Shown here piece after piece: positions 32,800 to 57,911 of a DNA stretch of 64,000 bases. The position numbers and the translations under genes are program-made. Every line of letters starts with the position of its first letter. Within the stretch, counting starts at the first letter, position 1. The stretch is from Candidatus Hydrogenedentota bacterium. GTDB taxonomy: Bacteria > Hydrogenedentota > Hydrogenedentia > Hydrogenedentales > JAEUWI01. The notes below the pieces were generated by a model. It made no database searches and had not been told where the DNA came from. It was given only the letters and a program-made list of their open reading frames with translations. The stretch is taken from contig JAHBVV010000007.1 of assembly GCA_019637335.1 (NCBI GenBank), forward strand, positions 1 through 64,000. Reading direction: 5' to 3'.

Positions 32800-32803
32800 T
32801 TGC
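32797..32803. other. junction: comM break and composition change
   Basis: Left of here the sequence is GC-rich and matches comM; right of here it is not comM and becomes less GC-rich with different codon use. No tRNA or integrase lies at the join. The matching second boundary (5' part of this comM) is not in the window. Confidence 0.7.
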
Positions 32804-32843
32804 GTTGCCTTCGTGCCATCGCAAGCTAAGTGCCTCAAAACCC

Positions 32844-37297: not shown

Positions 37298-38839
37298 TTA
37301 AACGGTCACTAGTGCTCTGTCTAAAGAACGGTACTGCACCGCCTCCCCGATATGTGACTCCGAAATCGTGTCTGATATAGATAGGTCGGCAATGGTCCGC
37401 GCCACGCGAAGCACCTTGTCGTAGGCGCGGGCGCTGAAGCCAAACTGATCCATCGCGCTTTGGAGGAGTTTCTCGGCTCCCGATTCCATGTTGCACGTTT
37501 CGCGCACGGCTTTAGAGTCCAGGTGAGCGTTGCAGGTAAATCTGCCGTCATATCGTGCTCGTTGCCGGTCTCGCGCCTCCTGCACCTCGGCCCGAACCTC
37601 GGCGCTGGTCGGACCGCTCGGCCGCTTGTCGGAGATTTCATCGTAGCTGAGCGCGGGCACATCGACGTGAATATCGATGCGGTCAAGCAACGGCCCCGAG
37701 AGACGGCTCATGTAGCGCTGAATTTCCCCGATGGAACAGCGACATGGTTTCACCGGATGCGACCGGTATCCACACGGACACGAGTTTAAGGCGACGACAA
37801 GTAAGAATCGTGACGGGAACGTAATCGAGTACATCGCGCGCCTGATGTGGACCATGCCTTCCTCAAGCGGTTGGCGCAGCACTTCCAACGCGCCGCGATT
37901 GAATTCAGGCAGTTCGTCAAGAAACAGCACGCCGTTATGGGCCATGCTCACTTCGCCCGGCATCGGACGCTGGCCATGTCCGCCGCCGCTGATGGCCACC
38001 GTGGTGGCGGTGTGATGCGGCGCACGAAAGGGACGGTGGGTGACCAGTTGTTTTCCTTCGCTGAGCACCCCGGCCACGCTGTAGACCCGCGTGGTCTCCA
38101 GCGCCTCTTCAAAGGTCATATCAGGCAGGATACCGGGCAGCCGGGACGCGAGCATCGTCTTGCCGGTACCGGGCGGGCCGACCATGAGCAGGTTATGGCC
38201 GCCCGCCGCAGCAATGGTCAGGGCACGTTTGACGTGGGCCTGACCTTTCACGTCGCTCAAATCACGGACATGGCTTCGCCTGTTGTGAAAAAGGCCCTCA
38301 ATATCTGTCACGAACGGCTCAACATCAGCCGCACCCGACATGAAAGCTGCCGCATCAGCCAGCGTCTCAACCGGAATGACTTGGATGCCGGGTACCACTC
38401 CGGCTTCCTGGGCGTTGTCCTTGGGAACAAGGATGCCCGAAAGTCCCTGGTCCCGCGCGGCAATCGTCATCGGCAGCGCCCCGGCAACCGGCCTGACCAT
38501 GCCGTTGAGCGCCAACTCGCCGACCACGGAGTATTCCGAAATGCGTCCTTCGCCGATCTGCTCGCTGGCGGCCAGCAGCCCAAGGGCGATGGGCAGGTCC
38601 AGCGCGCTACCTTCCTTGCGGATGTCGGCCGGGGCGAGATTGACCACGGTAACGCCGCGTGGCACGCGATATCCCGAATTGCGGATGGCAGAGTGGACGC
38701 GATCCTGGCTCTCCTTTACGGCCGCATCCGGCAGGCCCACGATGGTGAGCTTGTTCATGCCGGGATAGTTGTCCACCTCGACGGACAGCGGTATGCCGTC
38801 GATCCCGAAGATGGCGCTCGATTGGACCCGCGCTAACAC
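37298..38839 (-). CDS. comM: complete ComM/YifB Mg-chelatase-like AAA+ helicase
   Basis: A 513-residue protein from GTG 38839, matching the usual length of about 510. It starts VLARVQSSAIFGIDG, as the family does, and has a Lon-like S5 domain, then Walker A GPPGTGKTMLASRL, Walker B GVLFLDELPEF, the CPCG motif and the C-terminal MCM-like part. ComM promotes branch migration during natural transformation. An ATG at 38922 would add 28 residues, which the family lacks. It is divergent from the small XRE gene. Its sequence is clearly not that of the broken comM at 32.3 kb. Confidence 0.93.
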   Translation of the reverse strand: MLARVQSSAIFGIDGIPLSVEVDNYPGMNKLTIVGLPDAAVKESQDRVHSAIRNSGYRVPRGVTVVNLAPADIRKEGSALDLPIALGLLAASEQIGEGRISEYSVVGELALNGMVRPVAGALPMTIAARDQGLSGILVPKDNAQEAGVVPGIQVIPVETLADAAAFMSGAADVEPFVTDIEGLFHNRRSHVRDLSDVKGQAHVKRALTIAAAGGHNLLMVGPPGTGKTMLASRLPGILPDMTFEEALETTRVYSVAGVLSEGKQLVTHRPFRAPHHTATTVAISGGGHGQRPMPGEVSMAHNGVLFLDELPEFNRGALEVLRQPLEEGMVHIRRAMYSITFPSRFLLVVALNSCPCGYRSHPVKPCRCSIGEIQRYMSRLSGPLLDRIDIHVDVPALSYDEISDKRPSGPTSAEVRAEVQEARDRQRARYDGRFTCNAHLDSKAVRETCNMESGAEKLLQSAMDQFGFSARAYDKVLRVARTIADLSISDTISESHIGEAVQYRSLDRALVTV

Positions 38840-38951
38840 CGATGAATTGCCCTCGTTGGCCTCGACTTCCGGCCCGACCTTCGCGTTGGCTTTGCGTCGC
38901 ACATTTCGGATAATATAGCACATCGAATAACCGAGAATGGAATCGCAGCCA

Positions 38952-39182
38952 ATGGCAGACCGTGACATTCCGGCGCTGGTCAAGCGCCTGCGCAGTGCCA
39001 TGGGCTTGACGCAGGAGAAGTTCGCCCAGGAACTGGGTGTGTCGTTCAGCACGGTCAACCAGTGGGAGAACGGCCACCGCCGCCCGCATCCGTTCCTGCT
39101 CAAGAAGCTGGAGGAATTGGAGGCGGGACTTGCTTCAAGCAGCAAGAAGGGACGAGAGTCTGATCGGGCCGGTAATAGTTGA
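38952..39182 (+). CDS. XRE-family regulator next to comM
   Basis: A 76-residue protein that is one helix-turn-helix domain: VKRLRSAMGLTQEKFAQELGVSFSTVNQWENGHRRP, with a short charged tail. The shared upstream region with comM is about 110 bp. It may repress comM or the Druantia-like operon that follows; neither is shown. Confidence 0.85.
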   Translation: MADRDIPALVKRLRSAMGLTQEKFAQELGVSFSTVNQWENGHRRPHPFLLKKLEELEAGLASSSKKGRESDRAGNS

Positions 39183-39362: not shown

Positions 39363-40520
39363 GTGAGTTCCACTGCTTCAAAACTTCGCAAGACATTGCA
39401 TGCCCACCTCACCGGAATTGGCTTCAAAAAAAACTGCAAAGGCTATTACGTCGAAGGGGCGCTGACCAAGGACCGCATTCGTGATCTGCACGCGGCACAG
39501 CGGCAGCAGATTCTAACATCAAACACTCAATTTGTCGAGCAATACTGGGATGAACTGGCAATCCACTTTGCAACTGGGAGGTCCGTGTGTCCGGAAGCAA
39601 TTGAGCCCGAGTTAGTTGAAGTTGCGGCCGACACGTGCGAATCTCGTCTATTTCGACTGGCAAGTCTATTGTGGTCGGTACCCGTGTCTCAAGGGTTTGG
39701 TCGTCGATTGCGATTCTTGGTGCGTGATCGCCAGAACGGCTGTCTCATCGGTATCTTCGCTCTAGGTGATCCGGTCTTCAATTTGTCGGCACGCGATCAG
39801 TGGATCGGCTGGACCCACCAGGATCGGATGGAACGACTGGTACATGTCATGGACGCCTATGTGGTCGGCGCTGTACCACCGTACTCCGGTCTCATCTGCG
39901 GCAAACTCGTCGCGGCCCTCATCGGGAGTAACGAAGTCAAGAAGATGTATGAATCCAAGTATCTCGGCCGTGCCGGAGTCATTAGCGAAAAAGAGAATCG
40001 CGCACGTCTAGTCCTGGTGACGACTACTTCTGCGCTGGGTCGTTCGTCCATGTACAATCGTTTGGCCATTCCGGGGGGACCCCAATTTCTGAGGATTGGA
40101 AAGACAAAGGGTTATGGTCATTTCCATCTTACAGGTGATGTCTTTGGCATGATGAGGGAACTGCTCGAAGAGCTTGACCATCCTTACGCATCGGGACACC
40201 GATTTGGTATGGGTCCCAACTGGAAGATCCGCGTCGCACGGGCAGCTCTGGACGAGATTGGCCTTAATAGCGACGCCATCCTCAAACACGGCATTGAACG
40301 CGAAGTGTACACGGTGCCGCTGGCAGAGAACTGGAAGCAGATTCTGCTGGGCGAACATCAGAACGTGCGTGCTCGCGTCCTACCGGTGTCGGAGATAGCC
40401 GGATATTGCCTTCATCGCTGGATAGTCCCACGAGCATTGCGAGACAAAAGTTACAAGCGGTTTGCGCGGTGCAGAATTCTTGAACGATTGAACCAAAGCG
40501 GTTCCAACAACGGTGGGTGA
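39363..40520 (+). CDS. druA: DruA-like DUF4338 protein
   Basis: A 385-residue protein with the DUF4338 core: RLRFLVRDRQNGCLIGIFALGDPVFNLSARDQWIGW, later VTTTSALGRSSMYNRLAI and a GYGHFHL segment. DUF4338 defines DruA, the marker of type I Druantia anti-phage systems; its activity is not established. GTG 39363 is chosen because GGGAG lies eight bases upstream and the frame before it is unconserved-looking. It heads a plus-strand operon with the large helicase. Confidence 0.88.
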   Translation: MSSTASKLRKTLHAHLTGIGFKKNCKGYYVEGALTKDRIRDLHAAQRQQILTSNTQFVEQYWDELAIHFATGRSVCPEAIEPELVEVAADTCESRLFRLASLLWSVPVSQGFGRRLRFLVRDRQNGCLIGIFALGDPVFNLSARDQWIGWTHQDRMERLVHVMDAYVVGAVPPYSGLICGKLVAALIGSNEVKKMYESKYLGRAGVISEKENRARLVLVTTTSALGRSSMYNRLAIPGGPQFLRIGKTKGYGHFHLTGDVFGMMRELLEELDHPYASGHRFGMGPNWKIRVARAALDEIGLNSDAILKHGIEREVYTVPLAENWKQILLGEHQNVRARVLPVSEIAGYCLHRWIVPRALRDKSYKRFARCRILERLNQSGSNNGG

Positions 40521-40634
40521 ACAAGTGATTCAACAGGCCGTACAACAATGTCATTAGTGGGAGCCATTCTAATACGTTAAACACTTGGACTGGGACACCG
40601 GATTGTGGGCGGGTGTCAGCCTTGGGTGCAGCCA

Positions 40635-43529
40635 ATGACAAGCGACTTGACAACATGGCAGGAACATCTTGAGCATCATTTCGCGGTGCTGCGCGATGTG
40701 CGTGGAAAAGTCGCTCCCGATCAGCCTGTGTTTGCACTCGAACATGGACTAGCGGACCAGCAACTTGACGCACTCTTTGCTGGATTGCGCGGTCACGTCG
40801 CGAACAATTGCCCCTTAGACAGGCATCACTTGGCTTGGGTTGTGTACGCCGCTGAATTTGGTTACATCTACGCTGGCGATGAGTACTGGCAAACATTTGA
40901 GGACAACACCCCCGGCTGGACGCGCTTCGGTGACAGGAATTTTATCCGGCGGTGTTTTGCTGGTTTCCATAGTAAGTATCATGGTGCCAGGCCGACAGGA
41001 GCCTGGGCAAATCATTTTTCCATCATCTGTTGGCCGATCACGCACGCGATTTTGCCGCGTGACATGCAAACATACCTGGCGGAAGTACTCTATAATGTTC
41101 GCCATATCCTGTCGCAAGAAACCCTTGAATCACCCCGCCTATTGGGGGAATTGGTCGCCGCTCACGGCTGGCGGACCTCGTCACGCTTTCAGCAACTTCT
41201 ACAGGAACCATTGTTAGTCGGCCAAATTGCCGCAGCTCTTCTGATGGAGGAAGATAATGATTCGCGAGCACTGATATTGCCTGATACGCTCGCCCGCATC
41301 AGTGGCGACCTTGCCAAGGAACAACGCTCCCGCAATTGGCTGCGCAGCGCCAGGGAGATAGCGCGAGACAAAATCGCCTTTCATCGCCTTGGTAAGCGTG
41401 CAGGCAGGGGTATTGGACAATCTCCAGAAGCTACGCCGAATCGCCAGGGGGGCGGATCCCATGTGATGAGTCTGGAACCGCGTATCAGCTTGCGACAGGC
41501 GAGCAACAATACGTGGGACGTTTTTCTCGAACTGCCCGACTTATCCAGCTTGGGATACCGGTACCCCAAGTTCCTGGAGATTCTGACGAACACCCGCTTT
41601 TCCGTTGTGGGATCATCGGGCCGCCACTGGCCGGCTGTCCGTCTCCTTCACTCAAGACAACAAGTTCAATTGAGAAAATGGCCCGAAGCAGCCGAGAGCT
41701 TGATTTGTCTGGAGCGATCGGCACCTGAACTTGAGTACTTACTGGCAACCGAGTGCGCTCAACGCCCCGACGCGATGTGGGCATTCAAGATTGCATCTGA
41801 TGGATCAGCCGGAGAGGTCAGCCGCACCTTCATACGGCCTGATTGCCAGTATATCGTTGTGTGTACCGACGGCCGCGAGATTCCGTGCAATGATCTTTTC
41901 ACGCGGGTGAAGATTTCTTGTGAGGGCATTTGGGCTGTCAGAATTGATGTACCTCCGGTTATTGACGCACAACTGGCAGCAGACCTGCGTTATCTGGAAA
42001 TTAGCTATTCACGGACAACACACGTCTGGCCGGTTGGATTGATACCCTCACGTTGGGACGGCGAGGGGCGCGCCGAGTGGCTGACTACCGATCATGCCTG
42101 TATCGCCCTCCGCGCCGATCATTCAGTGGAAGGTTTTCGTCTGGCTTTGGAGGACGTGACGCTGGATGTGGTACCAGATGATCCCGGTGCGCCGGTGTTT
42201 GTCCAGATTCCCGAACTCGACGTAGGGACTCACCATCTGTATATTTCGGAGATCACTAACGGTGAAAGCAACACGCGCAAGTCCGAAGTTCTTGAAATCC
42301 GGATTCGGAATCCTCGCCCGCCTTCGTCTGGCATCGGTGTCGATGGAGCATTTCTTGTACTGATGGACCCGGCGCAACCGTCACTGGAACAGTTGTGGCA
42401 AGGCAACCTGAATTTGGAAGTACTCGGTCCGCCTACCCGTCAGGTAACCTTTTCCATTCGGTTGTATCGCAAGAGCGATCATCGCCCCATCCTTCAAAAG
42501 GATCTACCGCCAGTGGACCTTCCGTTGCGAGTGAACCTCTGGCGTGACCACTTCTTCCGCCATTTTTGCGAAAAGTCCGATGTTCAAAACGCCTATGACG
42601 TTGCCCACATGTGCGAGGTTAGAATCAGTGCCCGCGAATTGGGTGTCTATCGGTTTCAGGCGGAGCGCGAGTTCACGGCGTTGCGTTGGATTGTTCATCG
42701 TTCGCGAGATCAATACCGCCTCGAACTGCTTGATGACCGAGATACAGCGACGCAACCAGAAGTCTTGTTTTATCCGGTTGAAACTCCAGATTGCAACGAA
42801 ATGATTGGAATCGACGTACTGTCGCGAACAGCCAGTCAGACGGCCCGACCTGGGCTGTACGTTGCACGAGCGGATGAACTGGAACGTTGCGTGATAATAC
42901 CTCCACTGATCCGGACGCTTGGAGATTTGGCGGTGCATCACACCTTGAGACGCTATAGTCGCAATGTATCAGATATCAAAGTGACTGTATGCTTGGCGAT
43001 GCGATGGAAATCTGCTCGGGTCACTGGAGACATTTTCTCGATCAGAATTCAGAGAATTGTGGTTGAGAGTCTCTTTCGCCAAACTCTCTGTCTGGTATGT
43101 GGCGAGCGATGGGCACAATTGGAACGCGAGTTAGTGACTGATCGTGTCGCAGATCCCTTGAATCTAGCGTGTCGAACCGTCAATAGCCGTGCCGAGCGGG
43201 AGTTGCTCAATAGCATCGCCACTCGGATTGACGACCAGTGTCTTGAAGAAACCGCAGACCCTATTGGTGTGTTAGCGGTTCTCAGCCAGCGTCACCTCCA
43301 CCTTCCGGCACCACAGTTTGATGGCGGAACCGTAGTTGACAACTCTCTGCGAGTGGCAGCGGCTTTCGCGCTTTACCTGGCTTCATATGGCGCGATCTCA
43401 TCGGAATTGCCGGAGGGTTCAATTGACAAATATATCGCCTACCTTATGGATGCGCCCGGTGTGCTCCGAGCAGCAAGATTCATGGAATTATATCGCTCCA
43501 GGGTCGCTCCAACCACGGCATTAGCTTAA
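40635..43529 (+). CDS. large protein of the Druantia-like operon, domain unknown
   Basis: A 964-residue protein. The first 160 residues are helical and aromatic-rich (WVVYAAEFGYIYAGDEYWQTF). From about residue 280 it becomes strand-rich with Ig-like features, and the last 120 residues are helical again. I see no nuclease, ATPase or methylase motif. Its place between DruA and DruE-like genes is that of DruB/DruC in type I Druantia, and it might be one or a fusion of both. ATG 40635 is preferred to GTG 40605. Confidence 0.75.
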   Translation: MTSDLTTWQEHLEHHFAVLRDVRGKVAPDQPVFALEHGLADQQLDALFAGLRGHVANNCPLDRHHLAWVVYAAEFGYIYAGDEYWQTFEDNTPGWTRFGDRNFIRRCFAGFHSKYHGARPTGAWANHFSIICWPITHAILPRDMQTYLAEVLYNVRHILSQETLESPRLLGELVAAHGWRTSSRFQQLLQEPLLVGQIAAALLMEEDNDSRALILPDTLARISGDLAKEQRSRNWLRSAREIARDKIAFHRLGKRAGRGIGQSPEATPNRQGGGSHVMSLEPRISLRQASNNTWDVFLELPDLSSLGYRYPKFLEILTNTRFSVVGSSGRHWPAVRLLHSRQQVQLRKWPEAAESLICLERSAPELEYLLATECAQRPDAMWAFKIASDGSAGEVSRTFIRPDCQYIVVCTDGREIPCNDLFTRVKISCEGIWAVRIDVPPVIDAQLAADLRYLEISYSRTTHVWPVGLIPSRWDGEGRAEWLTTDHACIALRADHSVEGFRLALEDVTLDVVPDDPGAPVFVQIPELDVGTHHLYISEITNGESNTRKSEVLEIRIRNPRPPSSGIGVDGAFLVLMDPAQPSLEQLWQGNLNLEVLGPPTRQVTFSIRLYRKSDHRPILQKDLPPVDLPLRVNLWRDHFFRHFCEKSDVQNAYDVAHMCEVRISARELGVYRFQAEREFTALRWIVHRSRDQYRLELLDDRDTATQPEVLFYPVETPDCNEMIGIDVLSRTASQTARPGLYVARADELERCVIIPPLIRTLGDLAVHHTLRRYSRNVSDIKVTVCLAMRWKSARVTGDIFSIRIQRIVVESLFRQTLCLVCGERWAQLERELVTDRVADPLNLACRTVNSRAERELLNSIATRIDDQCLEETADPIGVLAVLSQRHLHLPAPQFDGGTVVDNSLRVAAAFALYLASYGAISSELPEGSIDKYIAYLMDAPGVLRAARFMELYRSRVAPTTALA

Positions 43530-43557
43530 AGACTATACGAGGCAAAGTGACATAGTG

Positions 43558-44631
43558 ATGAAAGTCGTATCGATTGCCGAGATCCATCGCCGCTCTGTAG
43601 AAAGCCTCCGACTTGATGCGGACGCACTTGACCTTACATCGGTGGAGGTTGTCGCCGCGACTATCCGTCGGGCTGCAAGCTTCTATTGTCCTTGCCCGAT
43701 GCGAACCTTGGGAAGTGTGGTGGTGGGAGCACATCGCGGCATCATCGATGATAGCGAAGCGTTCGCTCGCACTGTGGACGATACGATTGAGAGTCTTGTT
43801 GCGTACGGAGATCTTCTCGAACTGGAAGAACCAGATTTAGATGATGCGGCTGTCCGGGGCAGGACGCTTCTGTACTGCGCTCCGCCCTGTTGTGTCCCAC
43901 GGCTGACCGGGAGCCTACTTCTACTGGGAATATCGGCGGATGGAGTGTCGTCCCTGCCGAATGATCTTGAGGCGAGCATCGAATACTCGGGGCATTCTCG
44001 CATTCTGCAAACCACAAACGGCGATGATCTTGAGCGGCTGAAGGAACTCGGTTTTCTGGAACTCTCTATGGACGCCTGGCTTCGATCACCCGCCAAAGGG
44101 TCTCCGGAACAATTCTTGGTTTCGATCAATGAGCAATTGAGAACCGTCAGTGCCGCCGGAGAGATCGCAGCTTTGCGTATCATAAATCCAGATTCCAATG
44201 TTGACTTCTACCGGGGCCGATGGGTTGAGCCGACTAACGAGTGCGGCAAGTTTGTCGGACGAAGGCCCCAGTTGTACGGAGCGGACATCTGGTGCTACGT
44301 GGAGTTGAAGGATGGGCAGCCCCTGCAGTTGATTGACTTGCCATTGGCCCGAAGTAAATGGCGAGGCTGTGACGATGCCTGGTTGATTCAGTTGGCACTT
44401 GACGCTGTTCGCGGCAACCCCCAAAAATACCTTGTACGCCGCGGCCCTCCCGGGACAACGATAGTTGACTTCTTCTCGCCGCTTCCCATGTGGGCCAAAC
44501 GGCGACTGGATGCGATGGGTGAAACGGTTCCGCCTATGCGAAGCCTGTTTTCGTATAAATTCAGGGATGACGAACTGGCTGAGGAGGCCGACTTTTTGCA
44601 GAAACGGCTTTGGCTGGCACCGGCTTGCTGA
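43558..44631 (+). CDS. hypothetical protein of the Druantia-like operon
   Basis: A 357-residue protein with no recognised domain. It contains a Cys pair in FYCPCPMRTLG and CAPPCCVPR, is acidic in the middle and holds VDFFSPLPMWAKRRLDAMG near the end. Position before the large helicase suggests the DruD slot of type I Druantia. The intergenic distance to the next start is 31 bp. It may bridge the helicase and the 964-residue protein. Confidence 0.7.
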   Translation: MKVVSIAEIHRRSVESLRLDADALDLTSVEVVAATIRRAASFYCPCPMRTLGSVVVGAHRGIIDDSEAFARTVDDTIESLVAYGDLLELEEPDLDDAAVRGRTLLYCAPPCCVPRLTGSLLLLGISADGVSSLPNDLEASIEYSGHSRILQTTNGDDLERLKELGFLELSMDAWLRSPAKGSPEQFLVSINEQLRTVSAAGEIAALRIINPDSNVDFYRGRWVEPTNECGKFVGRRPQLYGADIWCYVELKDGQPLQLIDLPLARSKWRGCDDAWLIQLALDAVRGNPQKYLVRRGPPGTTIVDFFSPLPMWAKRRLDAMGETVPPMRSLFSYKFRDDELAEEADFLQKRLWLAPAC

Positions 44632-44662
44632 GGGCCTAACATTCCAAGACAGGAGTTGAACC

Positions 44663-47600
44663 GTGGCACTGACGATTGGGGAAACAGTTGAGCAACTTCA
44701 CGCGGCCCTGCGCGATTATATCGAAGCCACGTATCACATTGGCCACCCATCGCTGGTCGAACAGAGACGGCAGTTACTTCAGCAACCAGGCGTAATCTCT
44801 CAACGTCCGTATATTGAGAGTACACCACGGTACAGGATTGGCGAGCCGTTTGAGAATCTTGGCCTGCCAACTCCTGTTCTCGATGTATTCAGCTCGTTGG
44901 CAACCGCTTCAGACGGACCGATCTTGATCCACAATCCGCCCTATCACCACCAGGCCAAAGCCATTCAGAAATCCTTGCTGGAAAACCGGAGTCTGGTTAT
45001 AACAACAGGTACGGGTTCCGGTAAGACGGAGTGTTTTCTTCTTCCGATTCTTGGGAAATTGGCGCAAGAAGCTCATGAACAGGGTCGGGCTTTTGGCAGC
45101 ATGGCGGCAACCCGCGCGCTTGTCCTTTATCCCATGAACGCTTTGGTAAACGATCAACTTGGGCGACTACGCGTTCTGTTCGGAGATGATCGCATCGTGG
45201 ACCAGTTTGTTGACTGGTCGGGCCGACCGGCGCGCTTCGCTCGCTACACAAGTCGAACGCTTTATCCGGGTGTCAGGACTGTTGATAAGGATCAGTTGCG
45301 GCTGAAAGCCATCGGTGACTTTTATGTACGATATTTAGAACTTGCACAGGGGCCAGATTCCGAGGAGCAACGAGCCGCCAAACGTATCGTGGACCAACTC
45401 AAGACTCGTGGTAAATGGCCAGCAAAGCCGGACCTACTGGCTTGGTATGGACGCAAGGGTATGCGTTGGCAGGATACCAAAACTGGAGAGTTTAAGCGTT
45501 GTGTGACGCTTGCCAACGATCCAGAACTTCTGACGCGTCACGAGGTTCAAGAAACTCCGCCAGACATACTTGTCACGAACTATTCAATGCTTGAGTACAT
45601 GCTCATGCGGCCAATAGAACGACCCATCTTTGACCATACCCGAGACTGGCTAGAACAGAATCCCCACGAGCGTCTTCTGTTGGTTCTGGATGAAGCCCAT
45701 CTCTACCGCGGCGCAGCTGGCGCTGAGGTCGCGCTCTTGATCCGTCGGTTGCGGGCGCGACTCAATATCCCGCAGGATCGACTGCAGGTCATTTGTACTA
45801 GCGCCAGCTTCTGTGACCCTGCTTATGCGTCGCAATTCGGTGCTCAATTGACTGGTAAAGACCGCCGCGAATTCGAAACAATCGAGGGTGAACTCGCTCT
45901 CAGTGAAGCGGCTGGAAAGGGAAGTTCTCGCGATGCCGCCGTGCTCGCTGATTTGGATCTCGATAGCTTCTATTCCGGTGAAACTGATGAATCGCGCGTG
46001 GCGGCGGTTCAGTCCCTGCTTGACTACCGAGCCGTCAATCCCAAAAGTGACCTTCCCTCCACGCTCCATAGTGCCTTGAATGAGTTCCCGCCAATGGGGG
46101 AACTCATTAACCTAACCATGAAGGCAGCTGAACCCGTTTCCGAGTTGCACGGCAAGATTTTTCCCGACGCTGAGCCGGAAGCGGCAAACAGGGCAGTTAC
46201 GGCTCTGGTGGCTATGGGAAGTCTTGCACGAAAGACATCCAACACACCGGGTTTGTTGCCTTGCCGTGTTCACGGTTTCTTTCGAGGTCTAGCGGGACTC
46301 TGGGTCTGCATGGACCCCGGATGTAGCGCGTTGCCGGAACACCGCCGCGATGGCCCTTGTGGCAGGCTCTACAGCCAGCCGCGTGATATCTGCACTTGTG
46401 GATCTCGGGTGCTCGAACTCTACACCTGCCGCAATTGCGGAGCGGCATATGCCCGCGCATACACTAACAATATTCTTGAACCTGATTTCCTATGGGCGGA
46501 GCCCGGTGGCGAGTTTCGCACCCACACCGGTATGTTTGGTGAACTAGAACCTCTGGACATGCTTCTCGATGCGCCAGTGCGCAATGACATCGAGCCAGCC
46601 GATTACGACCTGATCACTGGACGGCTAAACCCAGGAGCTTTGGGAACCCGATCTCGTCGAGTGTTCTTACGGGGGGAACGTATTTCAGCAGGAGATGGTG
46701 ATGTGGACACCGGCCACACCGCGCAACGGGGTGAGTTTGTACCTTGTGCGGTATGCGGTGAATCTGCGGCGTATGGTCGGTCCTCTGTACAAGACCATCA
46801 GACCAAAGGCGATGAGCCATTTCAGGCACTCATTAGTAAACAGATTCAGGTACAGCCGCCAAACGCTACGCCTCCAACGCGCCTCGCCCCCCATCGCGGA
46901 CGAAAAGTCTTAATCTTTTCCGATTCTCGTCAGACGGCTGCACGCCTCGCCCCAAATCTTCAAACCTATTCGACAAGGGATGTCTTACGGCCGCTGATCG
47001 TGGTTGGCTTTGATCGCTTGCAGCGGTCGGCCAGTCTCGCTACATTCCTTTCGCTTGAAGATCTTTACCTAGCGGCACTCATTGCTGCCGAACTTCTGGG
47101 CGTGAGACTCAGACCCGAACTTAAGGGCGGTGAGAGTTTTCATGCGCGAGATAAAATCGAGGAAAGACTAGGTGCCGGCGCGTTGTTCGATGATAATCGC
47201 ATGCTTGAACTGTTAATGGAAATGCGCGGTGAAACTCCACCGCAGTTTTTGCTTCGGGGTATGGCATCATGCCTTACCCACCGATACTACAGCTTGGAAT
47301 CATTCGCGCTTGCATCGATTGTTGAACGCGCCTCGCACCGTGAAGCAATCTCCGATCTGCCCGACATCCCAGAAGTGGCGACGACCCCAGAGCAGAAACT
47401 AGCGCTGGCGCGTTTGTGGTTACGAAGCTGGCATCGATCCGGGTTCTGGCTCAGCCGGATGCCATCATCCTGGTGGATGAATGAAGTGAAACCGCACTCC
47501 GGCAAATTCGCAACAATAGAGAATTGGCTTGACACCAAAGATGCCCGGAAACTGTTTAACCGCGATTGGCTGGAAGCTCTCCTGCACCGTTTTACGGAAC

Positions 47601-50215
47601 CTATTGCACAGAATAAGTATCGTCTGAAGGGCATTGAGTTGAGTTTGCTTACCGGTGGGGAGTGGTCATACTGCCAACTGTGCCGGACGACACAACGCCC
47701 GTTTCCGGGAACTGATCGATGCGTAAATTGCCAGACACAAAACGCGCGCCAAATCGATCCCGCTACCGATCCGGTATTTGGCGCGCGTAAAGGGTATTAC
47801 CGGTCAAGCACCATGGAATCGTTGCGCGAACCTCCTGATCCGCCGCTAGCACTCATTGCTGCCGAACATACCGCCCAACTAGGCGCGGCTCAGTCAGATG
47901 AAGTGTTTTCAAAGGCCGAGGAACATGAACTCCTTTTTCAGGATGTGGAACTGGGTCGTGACGATAAGGGGCAGGAACGCCCGGCAATTGATGTCTTGTC
48001 GTGCACCACAACGATGGAGGTCGGTATCGACATCGGGACGTTGTCGGGAGTATCTCTCAGGAACATGCCCCCAGCGCGCGCAAACTATCAGCAACGTGCC
48101 GGTCGTGCCGGTCGGCGAGGTAATGCGGTTGCTACTGTCACGGCGTTTGGTAGCGCTGACAGCCATGACGAGCACTACTTCAGTCATCCCGATGAGATGA
48201 TTCGCGGAGAAGTCCAAGATCCGACGCTGACGCTGAACAACGCGGAGATTACTCACCGCCACGTCACCGCCTACCTCTTGCAGCGCTACCATCAACATAA
48301 GCTGCCCAACATCAGACCCGCCGATCAGCCACACCTGTTCGCAGTGCTCGGTTCGGTATCTGACTTCAAGCGAAAGGATACACTACTTAATCGAGATGAT
48401 TTCGCTTCTTGGATGCGCATTCAGGAGTCCGCCCTCCAGTCAGAGATTGCGGGGTGGCTGCCGCGCGAGCTTGAAGCATCCGATCGCGAGTCTCTTCTGT
48501 CCAATTTAATCTCCCGCACACTCTCAGATATTGATGGCGCTATTGGCATCGATTCCACCGATGGCACCGATAGCGAACGCGACGGTGCTGAGGGTACGGA
48601 GCGCGAGCCAGCTGAGTCGAATGGCGAAGAACAGCTAGAAGTGCCGGAGGAAACTGGCGAAGAACAGACCGGCAGAGATCCCGGTTCTGAAAACCTCCTT
48701 GATCGCTTGCTGTACAAAGGCGTACTGCCGCGTTATGCGTTTCCGACTGATGTTGCAACTTTTTATGTCTTCAATAATGAGCAATCGACGCGCTTCAGGC
48801 ACGTGTATACGTTTACCCCCTCACAGGGCCTTCCCGTGGCGCTCTCCCAGTATTCTCCCGGCAAGGAAGTATGGATAGCGAGTAAGCTCTGGACAAGTGG
48901 GGCGATATACTCGCCCGTCCGATCCGAAATGTACGATGCCTGGGCGCGCCGTCGTCTCTACTATGAGTGCACATTCTGCCGCTACGCATGTACACGAGAA
49001 CTCAATGACGGCTCGCGCGGGGAATCACTCGATTGTCCTGCCTGTGGTCGGTCAGCAACGCTGGGACCAGCGCGACCTTGGTTGCGTCCGCCCGGATTCG
49101 CCCACCCGGTGGAACGTGAAGAGGGTACGACACCTGATGACCAGCCCGCGCGAAGCTATGCAACGCGCGCGAAACTTACAGCCCCCACGCCCGCAGAGCC
49201 GGATCGTTGGACCACGCTCAATGACCGGTTGCGTGTCCACCACATGCGCCAGCACCTGCTGGTGACGAACCGAGGGCCGCGACAGGATGGGTACACCTAT
49301 TGCACGCGATGTGGGCGAATCGAACCTACTGCCTCGGCGTCAGGCACTGTCGGCGCTGCGCACCGTAAGCCGTATCCAGATGACCGCGTACCAACTTGCC
49401 CTGGCGGTCGCGCAAGCAGCGGTATAGTCCTGGGAACTGACTTCATCACGGATGTACTGCTGATTTCGCTACGGGTCGCTGACCCGATATCGCTTTCGGC
49501 TGGAGTGCTCGCAACTGACGTGGCACTGCGAACTATCAGCGAAGCTCTTTCAAAAGCTGCTTGTCAACGGCTAGGACTAGAGGCACAGGAATTACAGGCC
49601 GAGTACCGTCCGGCGTTGACGGAAGCTGGTAGGCTTGGATTTGAAGCCGAGATCTACATGTACGATACGCTTCCAGGCGGAGCCGGGTTCGTGCGGCGAG
49701 TGGGCGAGGTGGGACTTCAAGTCTTCAACGACGCACTTCAGATACTTGAGTTCTGTCCGGAGGTCTGTGACCGGTCATGTTACCGCTGTCTGCGCAGTTA
49801 CAAGAACAAACTTGAGCATGAGTTGCTTGACCGCCAGCTTGGTGCCAGCTTGCTGCGCTATCTCCTGACGGGCACCTACTCGATGTCAGATGTGGGACGC
49901 TTAAATGCCTCTACCGACCTGTTGTATGAGGACCTCTCGCGTCAAGCCATAGGCGGTATTAGCGTGAGTCGTTGGCATCAAGTCACTCTTGAGGATGGTT
50001 CCCACGTTGCCGTCCCAATATATGTGACTCGTAGCGATGGCACGGCGTTTGCCGTCGGGCTTCACAGCCCACTTACGCCAGATGACCCTCACGACGATGT
50101 GCTGCGAGATCTCAAGGAGTATTCATCAGTCTTGCCGGTACTGACAGTTGATGAAATCCTAGTGCGCCGAAATTTGCCGCAAGCCACGCACTTCGTACTC
50201 TCACGGATCGTCTGA
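44663..50215 (+). CDS. druE: DruE-like superfamily 2 helicase with DUF1998
   Basis: A 1850-residue protein. Walker A TTGTGSGKTE is near residue 113, DEAH (VLDEAHLYRG) near 343, and motif VI QQRAGRAGRRG near 1142, where a SF2 helicase would have them. Cys clusters (CRNCGAAY near 588, CVNC, CPACGR) suggest zinc sites. The C-terminal DUF1998 part has YDTLPGGAGFVRR near 1666 and CDRSCYRCLRSY near 1700. A 60-residue acidic linker at about 1290-1350 is unusual. GTG 44663 has AGGAG seven bases upstream. DruE is the shared core of Druantia systems. Confidence 0.9.
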   Translation: MALTIGETVEQLHAALRDYIEATYHIGHPSLVEQRRQLLQQPGVISQRPYIESTPRYRIGEPFENLGLPTPVLDVFSSLATASDGPILIHNPPYHHQAKAIQKSLLENRSLVITTGTGSGKTECFLLPILGKLAQEAHEQGRAFGSMAATRALVLYPMNALVNDQLGRLRVLFGDDRIVDQFVDWSGRPARFARYTSRTLYPGVRTVDKDQLRLKAIGDFYVRYLELAQGPDSEEQRAAKRIVDQLKTRGKWPAKPDLLAWYGRKGMRWQDTKTGEFKRCVTLANDPELLTRHEVQETPPDILVTNYSMLEYMLMRPIERPIFDHTRDWLEQNPHERLLLVLDEAHLYRGAAGAEVALLIRRLRARLNIPQDRLQVICTSASFCDPAYASQFGAQLTGKDRREFETIEGELALSEAAGKGSSRDAAVLADLDLDSFYSGETDESRVAAVQSLLDYRAVNPKSDLPSTLHSALNEFPPMGELINLTMKAAEPVSELHGKIFPDAEPEAANRAVTALVAMGSLARKTSNTPGLLPCRVHGFFRGLAGLWVCMDPGCSALPEHRRDGPCGRLYSQPRDICTCGSRVLELYTCRNCGAAYARAYTNNILEPDFLWAEPGGEFRTHTGMFGELEPLDMLLDAPVRNDIEPADYDLITGRLNPGALGTRSRRVFLRGERISAGDGDVDTGHTAQRGEFVPCAVCGESAAYGRSSVQDHQTKGDEPFQALISKQIQVQPPNATPPTRLAPHRGRKVLIFSDSRQTAARLAPNLQTYSTRDVLRPLIVVGFDRLQRSASLATFLSLEDLYLAALIAAELLGVRLRPELKGGESFHARDKIEERLGAGALFDDNRMLELLMEMRGETPPQFLLRGMASCLTHRYYSLESFALASIVERASHREAISDLPDIPEVATTPEQKLALARLWLRSWHRSGFWLSRMPSSWWMNEVKPHSGKFATIENWLDTKDARKLFNRDWLEALLHRFTEPIAQNKYRLKGIELSLLTGGEWSYCQLCRTTQRPFPGTDRCVNCQTQNARQIDPATDPVFGARKGYYRSSTMESLREPPDPPLALIAAEHTAQLGAAQSDEVFSKAEEHELLFQDVELGRDDKGQERPAIDVLSCTTTMEVGIDIGTLSGVSLRNMPPARANYQQRAGRAGRRGNAVATVTAFGSADSHDEHYFSHPDEMIRGEVQDPTLTLNNAEITHRHVTAYLLQRYHQHKLPNIRPADQPHLFAVLGSVSDFKRKDTLLNRDDFASWMRIQESALQSEIAGWLPRELEASDRESLLSNLISRTLSDIDGAIGIDSTDGTDSERDGAEGTEREPAESNGEEQLEVPEETGEEQTGRDPGSENLLDRLLYKGVLPRYAFPTDVATFYVFNNEQSTRFRHVYTFTPSQGLPVALSQYSPGKEVWIASKLWTSGAIYSPVRSEMYDAWARRRLYYECTFCRYACTRELNDGSRGESLDCPACGRSATLGPARPWLRPPGFAHPVEREEGTTPDDQPARSYATRAKLTAPTPAEPDRWTTLNDRLRVHHMRQHLLVTNRGPRQDGYTYCTRCGRIEPTASASGTVGAAHRKPYPDDRVPTCPGGRASSGIVLGTDFITDVLLISLRVADPISLSAGVLATDVALRTISEALSKAACQRLGLEAQELQAEYRPALTEAGRLGFEAEIYMYDTLPGGAGFVRRVGEVGLQVFNDALQILEFCPEVCDRSCYRCLRSYKNKLEHELLDRQLGASLLRYLLTGTYSMSDVGRLNASTDLLYEDLSRQAIGGISVSRWHQVTLEDGSHVAVPIYVTRSDGTAFAVGLHSPLTPDDPHDDVLRDLKEYSSVLPVLTVDEILVRRNLPQATHFVLSRIV

Positions 50216-51468
50216 TGCCAGGGCGCAATGTGCCAGACAACATGTGGAGAATTGTTGAACCGTCACACTGGCCCGACCCAGCAGCATGGAATTCCTTTTC
50301 GGCCTTGCTAAGGTTGGAGCAGTGTCCGCGACGGTGGGCGCTATCAAACGCAAGCTACCCTGGCTTGTGGGATGGCAAAGGATATCCCCAAAAGCTGCAC
50401 CTAGCGGCAATCGAGGGAACAATCGTTCATTCTACCGTGGAGGTTTTGATAAAGCACCTAGTCCAGAAAAACTCCGTGACGAGAACGGAGACCGGAATCA
50501 CGCAAGTATTAAGAGAAATTGGTGGATACACCCGTTTAGTTCAAAGCCAAATCGATGTCGCCCTCAAGCCATTTAACCAAAATCCCCGGACGGTCACACA
50601 CATAGACCGTATTCGACAACAGTTGATTGCGAAGCTTCCAGAGCTGCGATTTCAAGTGCAGACATTTGTTTCGCAACTGAGTCCAGTGTCAGGCAGACCG
50701 AAGCCATACCAGAGTCTTCCTGGTGGCAATCGAGAACACGGCGCACTCCCCATTGGCGCGCACATGGAAGTGACACTTGAGACACCAGAGTTGCGTTGGC
50801 GGGGAGTCGTGGATTTACTTGTCCTGTCAGAGTCATCCGCGGAAATCACTGATTTCAAGACGGGGGAAATAAAGAGTGAACATGAATTCCAGATACGAAC
50901 GTACGCACTGCTGTGGATGAGGGACAAGAAACGTAACCCGCATCAGCGAGTGGTAAGCAGACTTCTTATCTCATACCCGACGCGAAGCGTCGAGGTTCCG
51001 GTCCCGACGGATTCGGAACTTGCGTTGCTGGAGGCTGAATTGCGTTCGCGTACGGAAAGTGCGCAAAGTGAATGTGTCCGGCGACCTCCGAGGGCGAGAC
51101 CTGATGAAGACGCCTGCAAGTGGTGCGAGGTGCGGCACCTGTGTGGCGAGTACTGGGAGGCATTGCGAGACTGGTTCCCTACCACTCATGCTCCGGACCA
51201 GGTACGACACGACATTCAACTGCGCCTGACAAGTAGATCAGCACTTACTTCTTGGACGGCGATTGTGGAGGAGTCATCGAGTCTTGAGCGAGAAGCACTA
51301 GTCACAGTTCGATTTCCCCTGGACGATTATCACGAGTTTCAAGAAGGTCAATCCTTGCGATTGCTGGATGTACACATTTCTTATGTCCAGGGAGTAGATA
51401 CGACTGACATCCCGGCGATCAGCGTCGGCGTTTCGAGTGAAACTTTCGTTTATGGAGATGGGCCATAG
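50215..51468 (+). CDS. Fe-S PD-(D/E)XK nuclease coupled to the helicase
   Basis: A 417-residue protein of the RecB/Cas4/AddB class. It has LRLEQCPRRWALSNASYP near residue 35, a catalytic VVDLLVL...EITDFKTGE core near 200-220, and CKWCEVRHLC near 300. Together the four Cys (one early, CxxC-x5-C late) form the [4Fe-4S] pattern of Cas4/AddB. Its ATG overlaps the helicase stop (TGATG), so the two are made together. No nuclease of this kind belongs to the Druantia types I know. Confidence 0.88.
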   Translation: MPGRNVPDNMWRIVEPSHWPDPAAWNSFSALLRLEQCPRRWALSNASYPGLWDGKGYPQKLHLAAIEGTIVHSTVEVLIKHLVQKNSVTRTETGITQVLREIGGYTRLVQSQIDVALKPFNQNPRTVTHIDRIRQQLIAKLPELRFQVQTFVSQLSPVSGRPKPYQSLPGGNREHGALPIGAHMEVTLETPELRWRGVVDLLVLSESSAEITDFKTGEIKSEHEFQIRTYALLWMRDKKRNPHQRVVSRLLISYPTRSVEVPVPTDSELALLEAELRSRTESAQSECVRRPPRARPDEDACKWCEVRHLCGEYWEALRDWFPTTHAPDQVRHDIQLRLTSRSALTSWTAIVEESSSLEREALVTVRFPLDDYHEFQEGQSLRLLDVHISYVQGVDTTDIPAISVGVSSETFVYGDGP

Positions 51469-53006: not shown

Positions 53007-53507
53007 TTATTGGTCTTTGAGCGCCAACAGTCCGACCGCGACCGCGTCGAACATGTTGGAGTGATGAAGACTCTTCCAGCCCCGGTCGCGTAATAGGTAC
53101 GCCTTGAGTTCGGGGTAGCGGTACACGACCATCTGGGCGACCTGCTGCTTGGTGGCCCAGCCGTATCCGGTAACGGACTTTTTCACAGTGCTTGGCGCGT
53201 AGGCCAGGATCTTCAGATTCGCCCGGCGGCCGAGATAGAGGATCTGCCGGTAGTACAGGTTGAGCAACACCGTGCGCGGGGTACGTTTGGAAAACACCGC
53301 CCGCTCGACGGCCAGCACGTTGGGCTTGAGCGTCGTGATCAGTCCGAGCACGGCCTCACGGGCTTCGCGGAGGTTTTCCCTAGGTGGACGATCTTTGGCG
53401 AAGACCTTAACGCCGTGGTAAAGGAGCTTGCCGTCTTGAAGCAGCGCGTAGCCGGTCTTTCTGGTACCGGGGTCGAGGGCCAGAATCCGGTGGGTTGTCT
53501 TGGGCAT
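53007..53507 (-). CDS. RuvC-fold nuclease-like protein
   Basis: A 166-residue protein with RuvC motifs: ILALDPGTRKTGYAL (Asp) at the start, NVLAVERAVF (Glu) near 65 and HHSNMFDAVAVGLL (His/Asp) near the end, plus a basic APSTVKKSVTGYG segment as in RuvC. It probably resolves Holliday junctions or other branched DNA. It is the second of two RuvC-fold genes, eleven bases after the first. Confidence 0.85.
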   Translation of the reverse strand: MPKTTHRILALDPGTRKTGYALLQDGKLLYHGVKVFAKDRPPRENLREAREAVLGLITTLKPNVLAVERAVFSKRTPRTVLLNLYYRQILYLGRRANLKILAYAPSTVKKSVTGYGWATKQQVAQMVVYRYPELKAYLLRDRGWKSLHHSNMFDAVAVGLLALKDQ

Positions 53508-54848: not shown

Positions 54849-56474
54849 ATGAAAAGATTCTATGGGTATGTTCGCGTATCCACCGTGCGCCAGGGCGAGC
54901 GCGGTGTTTCCCTTCAAGAACAGCGCGAAGCCATCCTGCGGTACGGCAAGATTCACGGTATCGAAATTACCGAGTGGTTTGAGGAACGGGAAACCGCCGC
55001 CAAGAGTGGACGGCCCCAATTCAGCCGTATGCTGAAACTCCTGAAACAACGCAAAGCTGATGGCTTGGTCATTCACAAGATTGATCGCTCCGCGCGGAAT
55101 TTACGCGACTGGGCCAACCTCGGCGAACTTCTGGACGACGGCGTTGACGTGCGGTTTGTCAGCGAGAGCCTGGACATGCAGTCCAGGGGAGGCCGCCTAT
55201 CCGCAGACATTCAGGCGGTCGTGGCTGCGGACTACATCCGAAACTTGAAAGAAGAGGTCCGCAAGGGCTTCCAGGGGCGGCTACGGCAGGGACTCTATCC
55301 GATGAAGGCCCCTATCGGCTACGTGGACAACGGCGGCGGCCAGCCAAAAACACCCCATCCGGTGATGGGGCCTTTAGTGCGTGCCGCCTTTGAACGGTAC
55401 GCCACGGGTCAGTACAACTTGGATACGCTGGTTGAAGAAATGTATCAACGGGGTTTGCGAACAAGGAAGGGAAAGAAGGTTTCACGAAACGGCATGTCCA
55501 CACTACTCAACAACCCATTCTATTTGGGGCTGATTCGTATCAAGAAAACCGGTGAGACCTTTACCGGTGTCCACGAGCCGCTGATTTCCAAGGCGCTCTT
55601 TGACCGCGTGCAAGACATTCTTCACGGCAAAGCGGTGAAGAAAGCCAAACGCCACGAGTTCTTGTTCCGCCGTCTCCTGGTCTGCGCAAGTTGCGGCCAT
55701 CGTTTGATCGGCGAACGCCAGAAAGGACACGCCTACTATCGCTGTCACACCAAAAACTGCCCCACGCATTGCGCCCGCGAAGAACAGGTGGAATCAAGGC
55801 TCGAAGCAGCCCTGTTGCCTTTACGGTTTTCCCGTCAAGAGTTGCGTGCACTCCTTGCCATCGCCCGCGAGATGAAACAAGACTGGCTCAGCCATCGCGA
55901 GGCGCACGTCCAAACTCTGCACATGCAGCGTGTGGCGCTCACGGAGAAACTCGCTCGACTGATGGACGTCTTTTCCGAGGGTGGATTCGACAAGACGCTT
56001 TTCGATGAACGCAAAGAAGCGCTCCTTGCGGAACGCCTCGATATTGATACACGAATACACGAATTGGAAGACGGATCACAGGACGGCGGGCCAGCTAAGC
56101 TCCAACTTTTCCTCGAACTGGCGGGAAGCGCTTATTTAAGCTACAAATCCGCGCCGACGCCGCTGAAACGGGAAATTGTCGAGAACGTAACCTCGAACCG
56201 GCTCGTCAACGGAAAAAACGTGTTGATTGAGCTAAAATCTCCCTACTCCGAACTGGCCACACGGCCAAAATATTCGCTTGGTCGCCATGGTCTAGCATCA
56301 TATCGAACAGCAGTCAAAGAGTTTCTCACCAAGCTCACCGACCAGATCATCTACTTGGATCTGCCTCAATTAGATAGTACTGAGTGTACAACCAATCGGG
56401 CTTTGGGTCAAGAAACGAAGGGTTGCCGGAAGGGGCAACTTTTGGTGTCTTTGCCATCTCGGCCAGATGCTTAA
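54849..56474 (+). CDS. large serine recombinase
   Basis: A 541-residue site-specific recombinase. The resolvase domain starts YGYVRVSTVRQGERGVSLQEQ (nucleophile Ser11), with IHKIDRSARNLRDW. A Recombinase domain (RRAFERYATGQYN-like region near 190) and zinc ribbon CASCGHRL...YYRCHTKNC near 280 follow, then a coiled coil. Such enzymes integrate or excise elements at att sites without homology. It lies 37 bp before a second one. Confidence 0.93.
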   Translation: MKRFYGYVRVSTVRQGERGVSLQEQREAILRYGKIHGIEITEWFEERETAAKSGRPQFSRMLKLLKQRKADGLVIHKIDRSARNLRDWANLGELLDDGVDVRFVSESLDMQSRGGRLSADIQAVVAADYIRNLKEEVRKGFQGRLRQGLYPMKAPIGYVDNGGGQPKTPHPVMGPLVRAAFERYATGQYNLDTLVEEMYQRGLRTRKGKKVSRNGMSTLLNNPFYLGLIRIKKTGETFTGVHEPLISKALFDRVQDILHGKAVKKAKRHEFLFRRLLVCASCGHRLIGERQKGHAYYRCHTKNCPTHCAREEQVESRLEAALLPLRFSRQELRALLAIAREMKQDWLSHREAHVQTLHMQRVALTEKLARLMDVFSEGGFDKTLFDERKEALLAERLDIDTRIHELEDGSQDGGPAKLQLFLELAGSAYLSYKSAPTPLKREIVENVTSNRLVNGKNVLIELKSPYSELATRPKYSLGRHGLASYRTAVKEFLTKLTDQIIYLDLPQLDSTECTTNRALGQETKGCRKGQLLVSLPSRPDA

Positions 56475-56510: not shown

Positions 56511-57911
56511 ATGTCATCATATTTCGCTTACGTTCGAGTTTCCACCGCGCGCCAGGGCGAACACGGCGTCTCTCTGGAGGAACAACGCGCCGCTATCTCC
56601 GACTACGCCCAAAAGCATGATCTCCAGATCGTCCGGTGGTTTGAGGAACGCTTGACTGCGGCCAAACGCGGCCGCCCGATCTTCAATCAAATGGTCAAAC
56701 TGATTCGTCAAGGTGACGCCAACGGTCTAGTGATCCACGCCATCGACCGAGGCGTTCGTAATCTTTGGGATTGGGCCAGCCTGGGGGAACTGCTTGACGA
56801 AGGCAAGGACGTTCGGTTTGTTCGCGACAGCGTTGATCTTCAGGGTCGGGGTGGACGCCTAGCCGCCGACATCCAAGCCGTGGTTGCCGCCGACTACGTG
56901 CGCAATCTCAAAGAAGAAACCCTCAAAGGTTTCTACGGTCGCCTGAAACAGGGCTACTATCCGCTCAAAGCTCCTTTGGGGTATCTCGACCACGGTTCTG
57001 GCCAACTCAAAACCATCTGTCCCGTCAAAGGGCCGTTAGTCAGGCAAGCCTTTGAACGCTACGCCAGCGGCAAGTTCACCCTGGGGACGCTGGCCGAGGA
57101 ACTCTATTATCTGGGTTTGCGTAACGGCTGGGGATCGAAGTTCTCCGATAACGGCCTATCGGCCATCCTGAACAATCCGTTTTATGTCGGGCTGATTCGG
57201 ATTCGCAAGACCAACGAGATGTTTACGGGCGCCCACGAAGCGCTGGTGTCAAAATCGTTGTACGACCGCGTCCAAAGTGTGCTGCATGGCCGAACCCAAA
57301 AGCGGGTGCGCAAACACGACTTCCTCTACCGGGGCCTGCTCAAGTGTTCCGAGTGTGAGCGGTATCTGGTTGGAGAACGGCAACGGGGACACGTCTACTA
57401 CCGCTGCCACCAGAAGCACGAATCGCCGTGCTGCTTTACCGAAACCCAGGTCACCGAATCCATTCAACGCCTGTTGGGCTCGTTGAAACCAACCGACATC
57501 GCGACGCTGTCGGCTACTGAGGATTTTGAGAATCACCAAACCGTCCAGCCTGACCGCGCCGCACTGGAAGCCCAACTGGACAAGGTCACTCGTCGGCTCG
57601 GACGGTTGGCAGAAATTTTTCACGAAGGCTCGATTGACGCGGACCTGTACCGGTCACGCCAGCATGCCTATCTGCTCGAAAAAGTCGGCCTGGAAGAGCG
57701 CCTTAAACGTCTGGTATCGCAGGATGCGCGTCAGACCACGGCTCGAAATAATCTCTTGACCCGTGCCAAGGACTTTGCCGCCTTGTCGCGCTCAGAGCAG
57801 CGGGAAGTTGCCCGCATCTTGCTTTCCGCCTACGGAACTGCCAGCTTAGCTCATGGCTTCTCAAAAACCACCGGCATGACAGCCGTGCGCGTCAATCTAG
57901 AAGCCGCTTGA
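56511..57911 (+). CDS. second large serine recombinase
   Basis: A 466-residue paralog, Ser11 in YVRVSTARQ, Recombinase domain and zinc ribbon CSECERYL...YYRCHQKH. The usual DRSARN is DRGVRN here, close to the active-site arginine, so activity should be tested. It is 75 residues shorter than its neighbour. The 3' end overlaps the convergent XRE gene by 20 bases. Confidence 0.92.
   Translation: MSSYFAYVRVSTARQGEHGVSLEEQRAAISDYAQKHDLQIVRWFEERLTAAKRGRPIFNQMVKLIRQGDANGLVIHAIDRGVRNLWDWASLGELLDEGKDVRFVRDSVDLQGRGGRLAADIQAVVAADYVRNLKEETLKGFYGRLKQGYYPLKAPLGYLDHGSGQLKTICPVKGPLVRQAFERYASGKFTLGTLAEELYYLGLRNGWGSKFSDNGLSAILNNPFYVGLIRIRKTNEMFTGAHEALVSKSLYDRVQSVLHGRTQKRVRKHDFLYRGLLKCSECERYLVGERQRGHVYYRCHQKHESPCCFTETQVTESIQRLLGSLKPTDIATLSATEDFENHQTVQPDRAALEAQLDKVTRRLGRLAEIFHEGSIDADLYRSRQHAYLLEKVGLEERLKRLVSQDARQTTARNNLLTRAKDFAALSRSEQREVARILLSAYGTASLAHGFSKTTGMTAVRVNLEAA

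What the first reader, a model, noticed from the sequence alone, without database searches (positions are those of the whole stretch)
39363..51468. Druantia-like operon with a coupled Fe-S nuclease
DruA (DUF4338) and a DruE-like DUF1998 helicase frame two unrecognised proteins, as in type I Druantia. The fifth gene is a Cas4/AddB-like PD-(D/E)XK nuclease with a four-Cys Fe-S pattern, overlapping the helicase stop. The Druantia types known to me do not include such a nuclease. It would supply the missing DNA-cutting step.
Basis: partly seen in the sequence, partly recalled or inferred. Interest (0 to 1): 0.88.

Follow-up and report, generated by a model that had tools for sequence, protein, structure and literature searches.

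The report
Druantia operon with Cas4-like partner nuclease
This is a five-gene bacterial anti-virus operon of the Druantia kind in which a DNA-unwinding enzyme is followed by a partner DNA-cutting enzyme that recurs next to it in unrelated bacteria, which suggests how a Druantia system whose own cutting domain looks dead could still destroy viral DNA.

Summary
Window 39363-51468 encodes, on one strand, DruA, a 964-aa protein, DruD, DruE1 and a Cas4/AddB-like PD-(D/E)XK nuclease with four invariant cysteines; the DruE stop overlaps the nuclease start (TGATG).

The nuclease is not a chance neighbour. It follows DruE directly in 25 of 77 related loci fetched with DruE alone (several phyla), always co-directional and within -13 to +17 nt; its tree mirrors DruE's (r=0.86, 0/5000 permutations). 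No solo copies turned up in about 1250 genomes. In a sister clade of DruE the slot holds an unrelated NERD-type nuclease-helicase (16 loci); haloarchaea and Meiothermus carry divergent Cas4-like nucleases there.

The 357-aa protein is DruD; the 964-aa protein is an Ig-like-domain family that occupies the DruB+DruC place and is detectably neither. And a Druantia-linked PD-(D/E)XK nuclease already exists in PADLOC-DB as 'DruK'; I found it directly behind DruE2/DruE4. The window's nuclease shares its core and cysteines but not its family score.

Best reading: a Druantia type I variant whose nuclease step, dead in DruE's C-terminus, is supplied in trans. Not tested experimentally. Novelty: new variant of a known kind.

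The parts
39363..40520 (+). DruA (DUF4338; short form, about 385 aa; ORF open from GTG 39297)
   Evidence: PADLOC PDLC00002 8.6e-146; Pfam DruA 9.6e-85
40635..43529 (+). 964-aa protein (ORF open from GTG 40605) in the DruB+DruC place: N-terminal helical domain, a chain of Ig-like beta-sandwiches (about 290-765), C-terminal helical domain
   Evidence: No Pfam/PADLOC/NCBIfam hit; family in 78 of 84 DruE1 loci; AF2 pLDDT 82.6, pTM 0.59; Foldseek only generic Ig/MG-like matches
43558..44631 (+). DruD, 357 aa, function unknown
   Evidence: PADLOC PDLC00010 DruD1 1.6e-112
44663..50215 (+). DruE1, 1850-aa YprA-family SF2 helicase (Walker A GTGSGKT 116-122, DEAH 343-346, MZB/DUF1998 1626-1710)
   Evidence: PADLOC DruE1 1946 bits; Pfam DEAD, Helicase_C, MZB
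49937..50212 (+). DruE C-terminal domain without conserved catalytic residues (inactivated Vsr-like in the literature)
   Evidence: Conservation over about 79 DruE1 sequences; PMC12458937
50215..51468 (+). Cas4/AddB-like PD-(D/E)XK nuclease, 417 aa, start overlapping the DruE stop (TGATG)
   Evidence: PF12705 5.2e-16; 24-member family; AF2 pLDDT 86.9, pTM 0.84; Foldseek ACE1/AdnA/Cas4/MGME1
50323..50325 (+). Cys37 codon, first predicted Fe-S ligand
   Evidence: invariant in 24 relatives and in DruK/archaeal members
50812..50859 (+). Nuclease core: Asp200, Asp213, Lys215 (GxxDLL...DFKTG)
   Evidence: invariant
51115..51144 (+). Cys301, Cys304, Cys310 codons, remaining predicted Fe-S ligands
   Evidence: invariant
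51208..51453 (+). C-terminal OB-fold-like barrel (residues 332-413)
   Evidence: AF2 model; lower-ranked Foldseek matches to human and archaeal SSB proteins

Best explanation
The operon is a Druantia type I variant (DruA, an Ig-like scaffold protein in place of DruB+DruC, DruD, DruE) with a dedicated effector nuclease. DruE, a YprA-family helicase, loads on phage DNA that carries 3' single-stranded stretches and unwinds it. Its own C-terminal nuclease domain is inactive. The translationally coupled Cas4/AddB-like nuclease (Fe-S-clamped RecB core plus a C-terminal OB barrel that probably holds ssDNA) works with DruE and cuts the exposed strand, so the pair acts as a two-subunit helicase-nuclease. 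DruA, the 964-aa protein and DruD would sense infection or license DruE. Shown: gene content, conserved adjacency and co-inheritance, intact nuclease motifs, no conserved active site in the DruE C-terminus. Inferred: physical complex, substrate, activation order, anti-phage effect.
For: Adjacent to DruE in 25 of 77 DruE-selected loci across phyla; 28 of 28 cases (plasmids and window included) co-directional, -13 to +17 nt. Mirror tree DruE/nuclease r=0.864, 0 of 5000 permutations. Nuclease-first searches of about 1250 genomes: every full-family hit is beside DruE, one of them independent of the DruE search. Nuclease remnants right behind DruE in L033 and L037 indicate loss from an ancestral slot. 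Catalytic residues and four Cys invariant, also in divergent DruE-linked nucleases of haloarchaea, Meiothermus and the DruK type. Sister clade carries a different intact nuclease (D55...E97-x-K99, NERD-type) in the same slot. DruE C-terminus lacks conserved catalytic residues, as published for type I (PMC12458937). Type III DruE is an experimentally shown helicase-nuclease using 3'-ssDNA-containing substrates (PMC13192584).
Against: 27 of 77 loci (some with short flanks) show no nuclease in the slot, and canonical P. putida DruABCDE has none, so the nuclease is not strictly required across type I, or another gene substitutes. Streptomyces loci carry an unrelated PDC-M02B gene instead. No complex model, biochemistry or phage assay exists. 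Type I DruE helicase polarity and substrate are extrapolated from type III and MrfA.
Confidence: 0.65

Rival explanations
1. The nuclease is an optional accessory cassette that trades places at a hot slot behind DruE (with NERD-helicases, PDC-M02B and others) and acts as an independent or back-up defence rather than as DruE's effector.
For: Slot content varies: Cas4-like, NERD-helicase, PDC-M02B, or nothing.
Against: Start codons overlap or nearly touch the DruE stop in 28 of 28 cases; congruent distances; no full-family copies away from DruE in the genomes searched; Cas4-like nucleases recur behind divergent DruE1, DruE2 and DruE4.
Confidence: 0.2
2. The nuclease processes DNA ends for sensing or loading (as Cas4 trims prespacers) so that DruE can engage, and destruction is done by host nucleases or another enzyme.
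For: Closest solved relatives include Cas4 of Cas1-Cas2 complexes and the Argonaute-associated Cas4 protein ACE1; SSB-like C-terminal barrel.
Against: No cas1, cas2 or CRISPR features among the flanking genes scanned; AddB/AdnA-type relatives are degradative.
Confidence: 0.12
3. Chance neighbour without functional link.
For: Absent from many DruE1 loci.
Against: Recurrence in unrelated phyla with conserved spacing and congruent trees.
Confidence: 0.02

Closest known systems
Druantia type I (DruABCDE; PADLOC DruA1-DruE1)
   Same: DruA, DruD and DruE1 by strong profile matches; gene order A - x - D - E
   Different: DruB and DruC not detectable; one 964-aa protein in their place; extra nuclease behind DruE
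PADLOC DruK (PD-(D/E)XK nuclease behind DruE2/DruE4 in type II/IV-like loci)
   Same: Position behind DruE; catalytic residues and four Cys identical in alignment
   Different: Only 51 bits over a 160-residue stretch against 419 bits for a true DruK; sits with DruE1, not DruE2/4
Cas4, Argonaute-associated Cas4 (ACE1), AddB/AdnAB and MGME1 nucleases
   Same: RecB-like core; four-Cys cluster pattern as in Cas4/AddB
   Different: Extra C-terminal OB barrel; no cas genes found beside it; not fused to a UvrD-type helicase
Druantia type III DruH-DruE
   Same: YprA-family DruE helicase coupled to a nuclease (PMC13192584)
   Different: There the nuclease is a fused PLD domain; here it is a separate PD-(D/E)XK protein
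MrfAB and DISARM (DrmAB-DrmC)
   Same: YprA-like helicase with a nuclease encoded downstream (PMC12458937)
   Different: Different nuclease folds (3'-5' exonuclease, PLD)

Membership tests
Druantia type I | DruE1 helicase | tested here: met
   PDLC00013, 1946 bits over 3-1847
Druantia type I | DruA (DUF4338) | tested here: met
   PDLC00002 8.6e-146; PF14236
Druantia type I | DruD | tested here: met
   PDLC00010 1.6e-112
Druantia type I | DruB and DruC | tested here: not met
   No PADLOC hit for the 964-aa protein; hhalign of its 34-member family against P. putida DruB and DruC gives probability 0.1% (single-sequence targets, so a very remote link is not excluded)
Druantia type I | Anti-phage activity | not testable with these tools
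   Needs plaque assays
DruK (PADLOC) | Full-length family match | tested here: not met
   51 bits, 113-262 of 326 positions, against 419.5 bits for the L114 protein
DruK (PADLOC) | PD-(D/E)XK core and position directly behind DruE | tested here: met
Cas4 (CRISPR) | Cas4 family score above curated cut-off | tested here: not met
   TIGR00372 26.6 bits against cut-off 65
Cas4 (CRISPR) | cas1/cas2 neighbourhood | tested here: inconclusive
   None among the flanking ORFs scanned; not all window genes were scanned
RecB/AddB-type Fe-S nuclease superfamily | H, GxxD, DxK, QxxxY motifs and Cx(n)CxxCx5C | tested here: met
   invariant H72, D200, D213, K215, Q226, Y230, C37, C301, C304, C310
RecB/AddB-type Fe-S nuclease superfamily | Bound Fe-S cluster | not testable with these tools
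   Cysteine geometry in the model was not measured; needs spectroscopy

The most novel reading that the evidence does not exclude
DruE-type helicases follow a general rule, one active nuclease per system, in cis or in trans: a fused PLD nuclease in type III, DruK in II/IV-like loci, and in the type I lineage an interchangeable partner slot behind DruE filled by a Cas4-like Fe-S/OB nuclease or a NERD nuclease-helicase. The window is a so far undescribed type I subtype that also replaces DruB+DruC by one Ig-domain protein.
Probability: 0.5. Interest if true: 0.65.

Novelty: new variant of a known kind. Interest (0 to 1): 0.56.

Why it matters
How type I Druantia stops phages is unknown, and its DruE is reported to carry a dead nuclease domain. 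A partner nuclease that travels with DruE gives a direct, testable effector. The interchangeable slot suggests that Druantia loci can be searched for hidden nuclease subunits that current annotation tools miss.

Tried and rejected
Chance neighbour: rejected by the survey, spacing and mirror tree. Nuclease = PADLOC DruK: core and position shared, family score not met. 964-aa protein = fused DruB+DruC, DruF or DruH: no profile support. Foldseek of the 964-aa model gave only generic Ig/MG-like beta-sandwich matches with TM about 0.1, so no function was assigned. Plasmid and viral collections held no close nuclease relatives. DruK searches in the window's phylum and in 329 genomes of Halotalea's phylum found nothing; 296 genomes of Microbacterium's phylum gave three hits, two of them beside DruE. 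Literature searches for a type I nuclease or for DruK found no description in the open library; the original Druantia paper (Doron 2018) was not read. Consensus promoter and terminator scans were at the chance level.

Full report
What is there. Five co-directional genes run from 39363 to 51468. Profile searches name DruA (PDLC00002 8.6e-146; PF14236), DruD (PDLC00010 1.6e-112) and DruE1 (PDLC00013, 1946 bits; DEAD, Helicase_C and MZB domains). The 964-aa protein has no match in PADLOC, Pfam or NCBIfam, nor does any of its 34 family members in Pfam. The fifth gene is a PD-(D/E)XK protein (PF12705 5.2e-16) with weak Cas4 and DruK resemblance. DruE stop and nuclease start overlap as TGATG.

Is the nuclease a real component? 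A scan of genome contigs with a DruE alignment, blind to the nuclease, gave 80 loci. Of 77 with a DruE of at least 1500 aa, 25 have the nuclease directly behind DruE, 16 a NERD-type nuclease-SF1 helicase (one of them only a fragment), 7 PDC-M02B, 27 nothing recognised, and 2 were cut by the contig end. Hosts of the Cas4-like form include Actinomycetota, Acidobacteriota, Gemmatimonadota, Planctomycetota, an Omnitrophota MAG, Desulfobulbus and gammaproteobacteria. In all 28 cases including window and plasmids the genes are co-directional and the start lies -13 to +17 nt from the DruE stop. Two loci scored otherwise keep nuclease remnants right behind DruE (L033, L037). In 24 complete loci the distance matrices of DruE and nuclease correlate with r=0.864 (0 of 5000 permutations; DruE with the 964-aa family 0.934, with DruD 0.920). 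The permutation test does not by itself separate co-inheritance of the operon from functional coupling.

Nuclease-first control. Searching the window's phylum (68 genomes), 395 Actinomycetes, 396 Acidobacteriota and 392 Planctomycetota genomes with the nuclease found it only in G000, G068, G201, G073 and G069; all five are beside DruE, and G201 (L096) was not known from the DruE search. These searches score only a few candidates per genome, so rare solo copies are not fully excluded. Forty genomes with DruE but without the nuclease in the slot have no full copy elsewhere, only 35-40 bit partial RecB-like hits.

Tree. On the DruE tree (FastTree, local supports) the window lies in one half of the lineage with nearly all the Cas4-like nucleases (25 of 43 rows, with 7 PDC-M02B and 10 without); the other, mostly proteobacterial half has the NERD-helicases (16 of 35) or none. 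The branch joining the first half has support 90, so its monophyly is only moderately supported. More distant DruE1 loci of haloarchaea (L005, L098, L099, L104) and Meiothermus (L006) also have a divergent Cas4-like nuclease directly behind DruE.

Nuclease anatomy. Twenty-four relatives keep H72, E185, D200, D213, K215, Q226, Y230 and C37, C301, C304, C310. The AlphaFold2 model (pLDDT 86.9, pTM 0.84) has a RecB-like core and a C-terminal beta barrel; Foldseek's best solved matches are the Argonaute-associated Cas4 protein ACE1, AdnA, Cas4 and MGME1, with SSB proteins further down for the barrel. An Fe-S cluster is predicted from the cysteine pattern only.

Relation to DruK. PADLOC-DB contains DruK, a PD-(D/E)XK nuclease. 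I located DruK directly behind DruE2 (L114: DruF-DruE2-DruK, 419.5 bits) and behind DruE4 (L115, 118 bits). The window nuclease reaches only 51 bits over 160 residues, but all the catalytic and cysteine positions named above except E185 are identical across window, archaeal, Meiothermus and DruK-type proteins, and hhalign aligns the families with 96% probability over 128 columns. So the kind of partner is already named for other Druantia types; its presence in the type I lineage was not found described in the papers I could search.

Why a partner nuclease makes sense. Bell et al. (PMC12458937) report that type I and II DruE carry inactivated Vsr domains. In about 79 DruE1 sequences here no acidic or basic residue beyond position 1758 reaches 80% conservation, which agrees. 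Type III DruE by contrast has a fused PLD nuclease and was shown to bind 3'-ssDNA-containing structures and cleave long DNA (PMC13192584). The NERD-helicase of the sister clade keeps D55, E97 and K99. The simplest reading is that the nuclease step is supplied in trans in this lineage. The 27 loci without a recognised nuclease, and P. putida DruABCDE, are the main evidence that this is not universal.

The 964-aa protein. Its family is in 78 of 84 DruE1 loci, including Nitrosococcus watsonii (31% identity over the full length). hhalign finds no relation to P. putida DruB or DruC, to DruF of L114 or to the protein preceding DruE in L103. The model (pLDDT 82.6, pTM 0.59) shows helical ends around a chain of beta-sandwiches; Foldseek returns only generic Ig/MG-like matches. 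I treat it as a likely scaffold or sensor, without evidence of what it binds.

Conclusion. The claim that no Druantia type has such a nuclease is not right, given DruK. Novelty: a new variant of a known kind.

Noticed in passing
L038, L039, L042, L043, L045, L046, L047, L049, L053, L056, L065, L068, L072, L079, L084 behind DruE: About 660-aa NERD-type nuclease-SF1 helicase (invariant D55, E97-x-K99, GGVGKT) in the slot that the Cas4-like nuclease holds elsewhere.
   Followed up: partly
L022, L023, L026, L027, L058, L060, L061 (Streptomyces) behind DruE: A 398-aa PDC-M02B protein (PADLOC 9.8e-181 in L022) preceded by a 189-245 aa ORF replaces the nuclease.
   Followed up: partly
L021, L028, L034, L036, L039, L054 and others, downstream of the nuclease slot, minus strand: In many loci DruA is a long form (about 670 aa) on the opposite strand, with a further ORF of about 500 aa beyond it; looks like a separable module.
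   Followed up: no
window 33000-64000: G+C falls from about 0.65 to about 0.54 near 33-34 kb and stays low; two large serine recombinases at 54849-56474 and 56511-57911 suggest a mobile element.
   Followed up: partly
window 37298-39145 (-): Mg-chelatase-like ComM/YifB family gene (615 aa, all three domains) directly upstream of DruA, divergently transcribed.
   Followed up: no
window 53007-53507 (-), 59910-60863 (-): RuvC-like resolvase and a caspase-domain (Peptidase_C14) protein near the operon.
   Followed up: no
window 32796-33857 (+): 353-aa protein with several helix-turn-helix (HTH_3) repeats, five matched stretches.
   Followed up: no
L005 14426-15289, L098 13288-14286, L099 13288-14286: Haloarchaeal plasmid loci have an open reading frame for a Cas4-like nuclease right behind DruE that the PLSDB gene table does not list.
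   Followed up: partly
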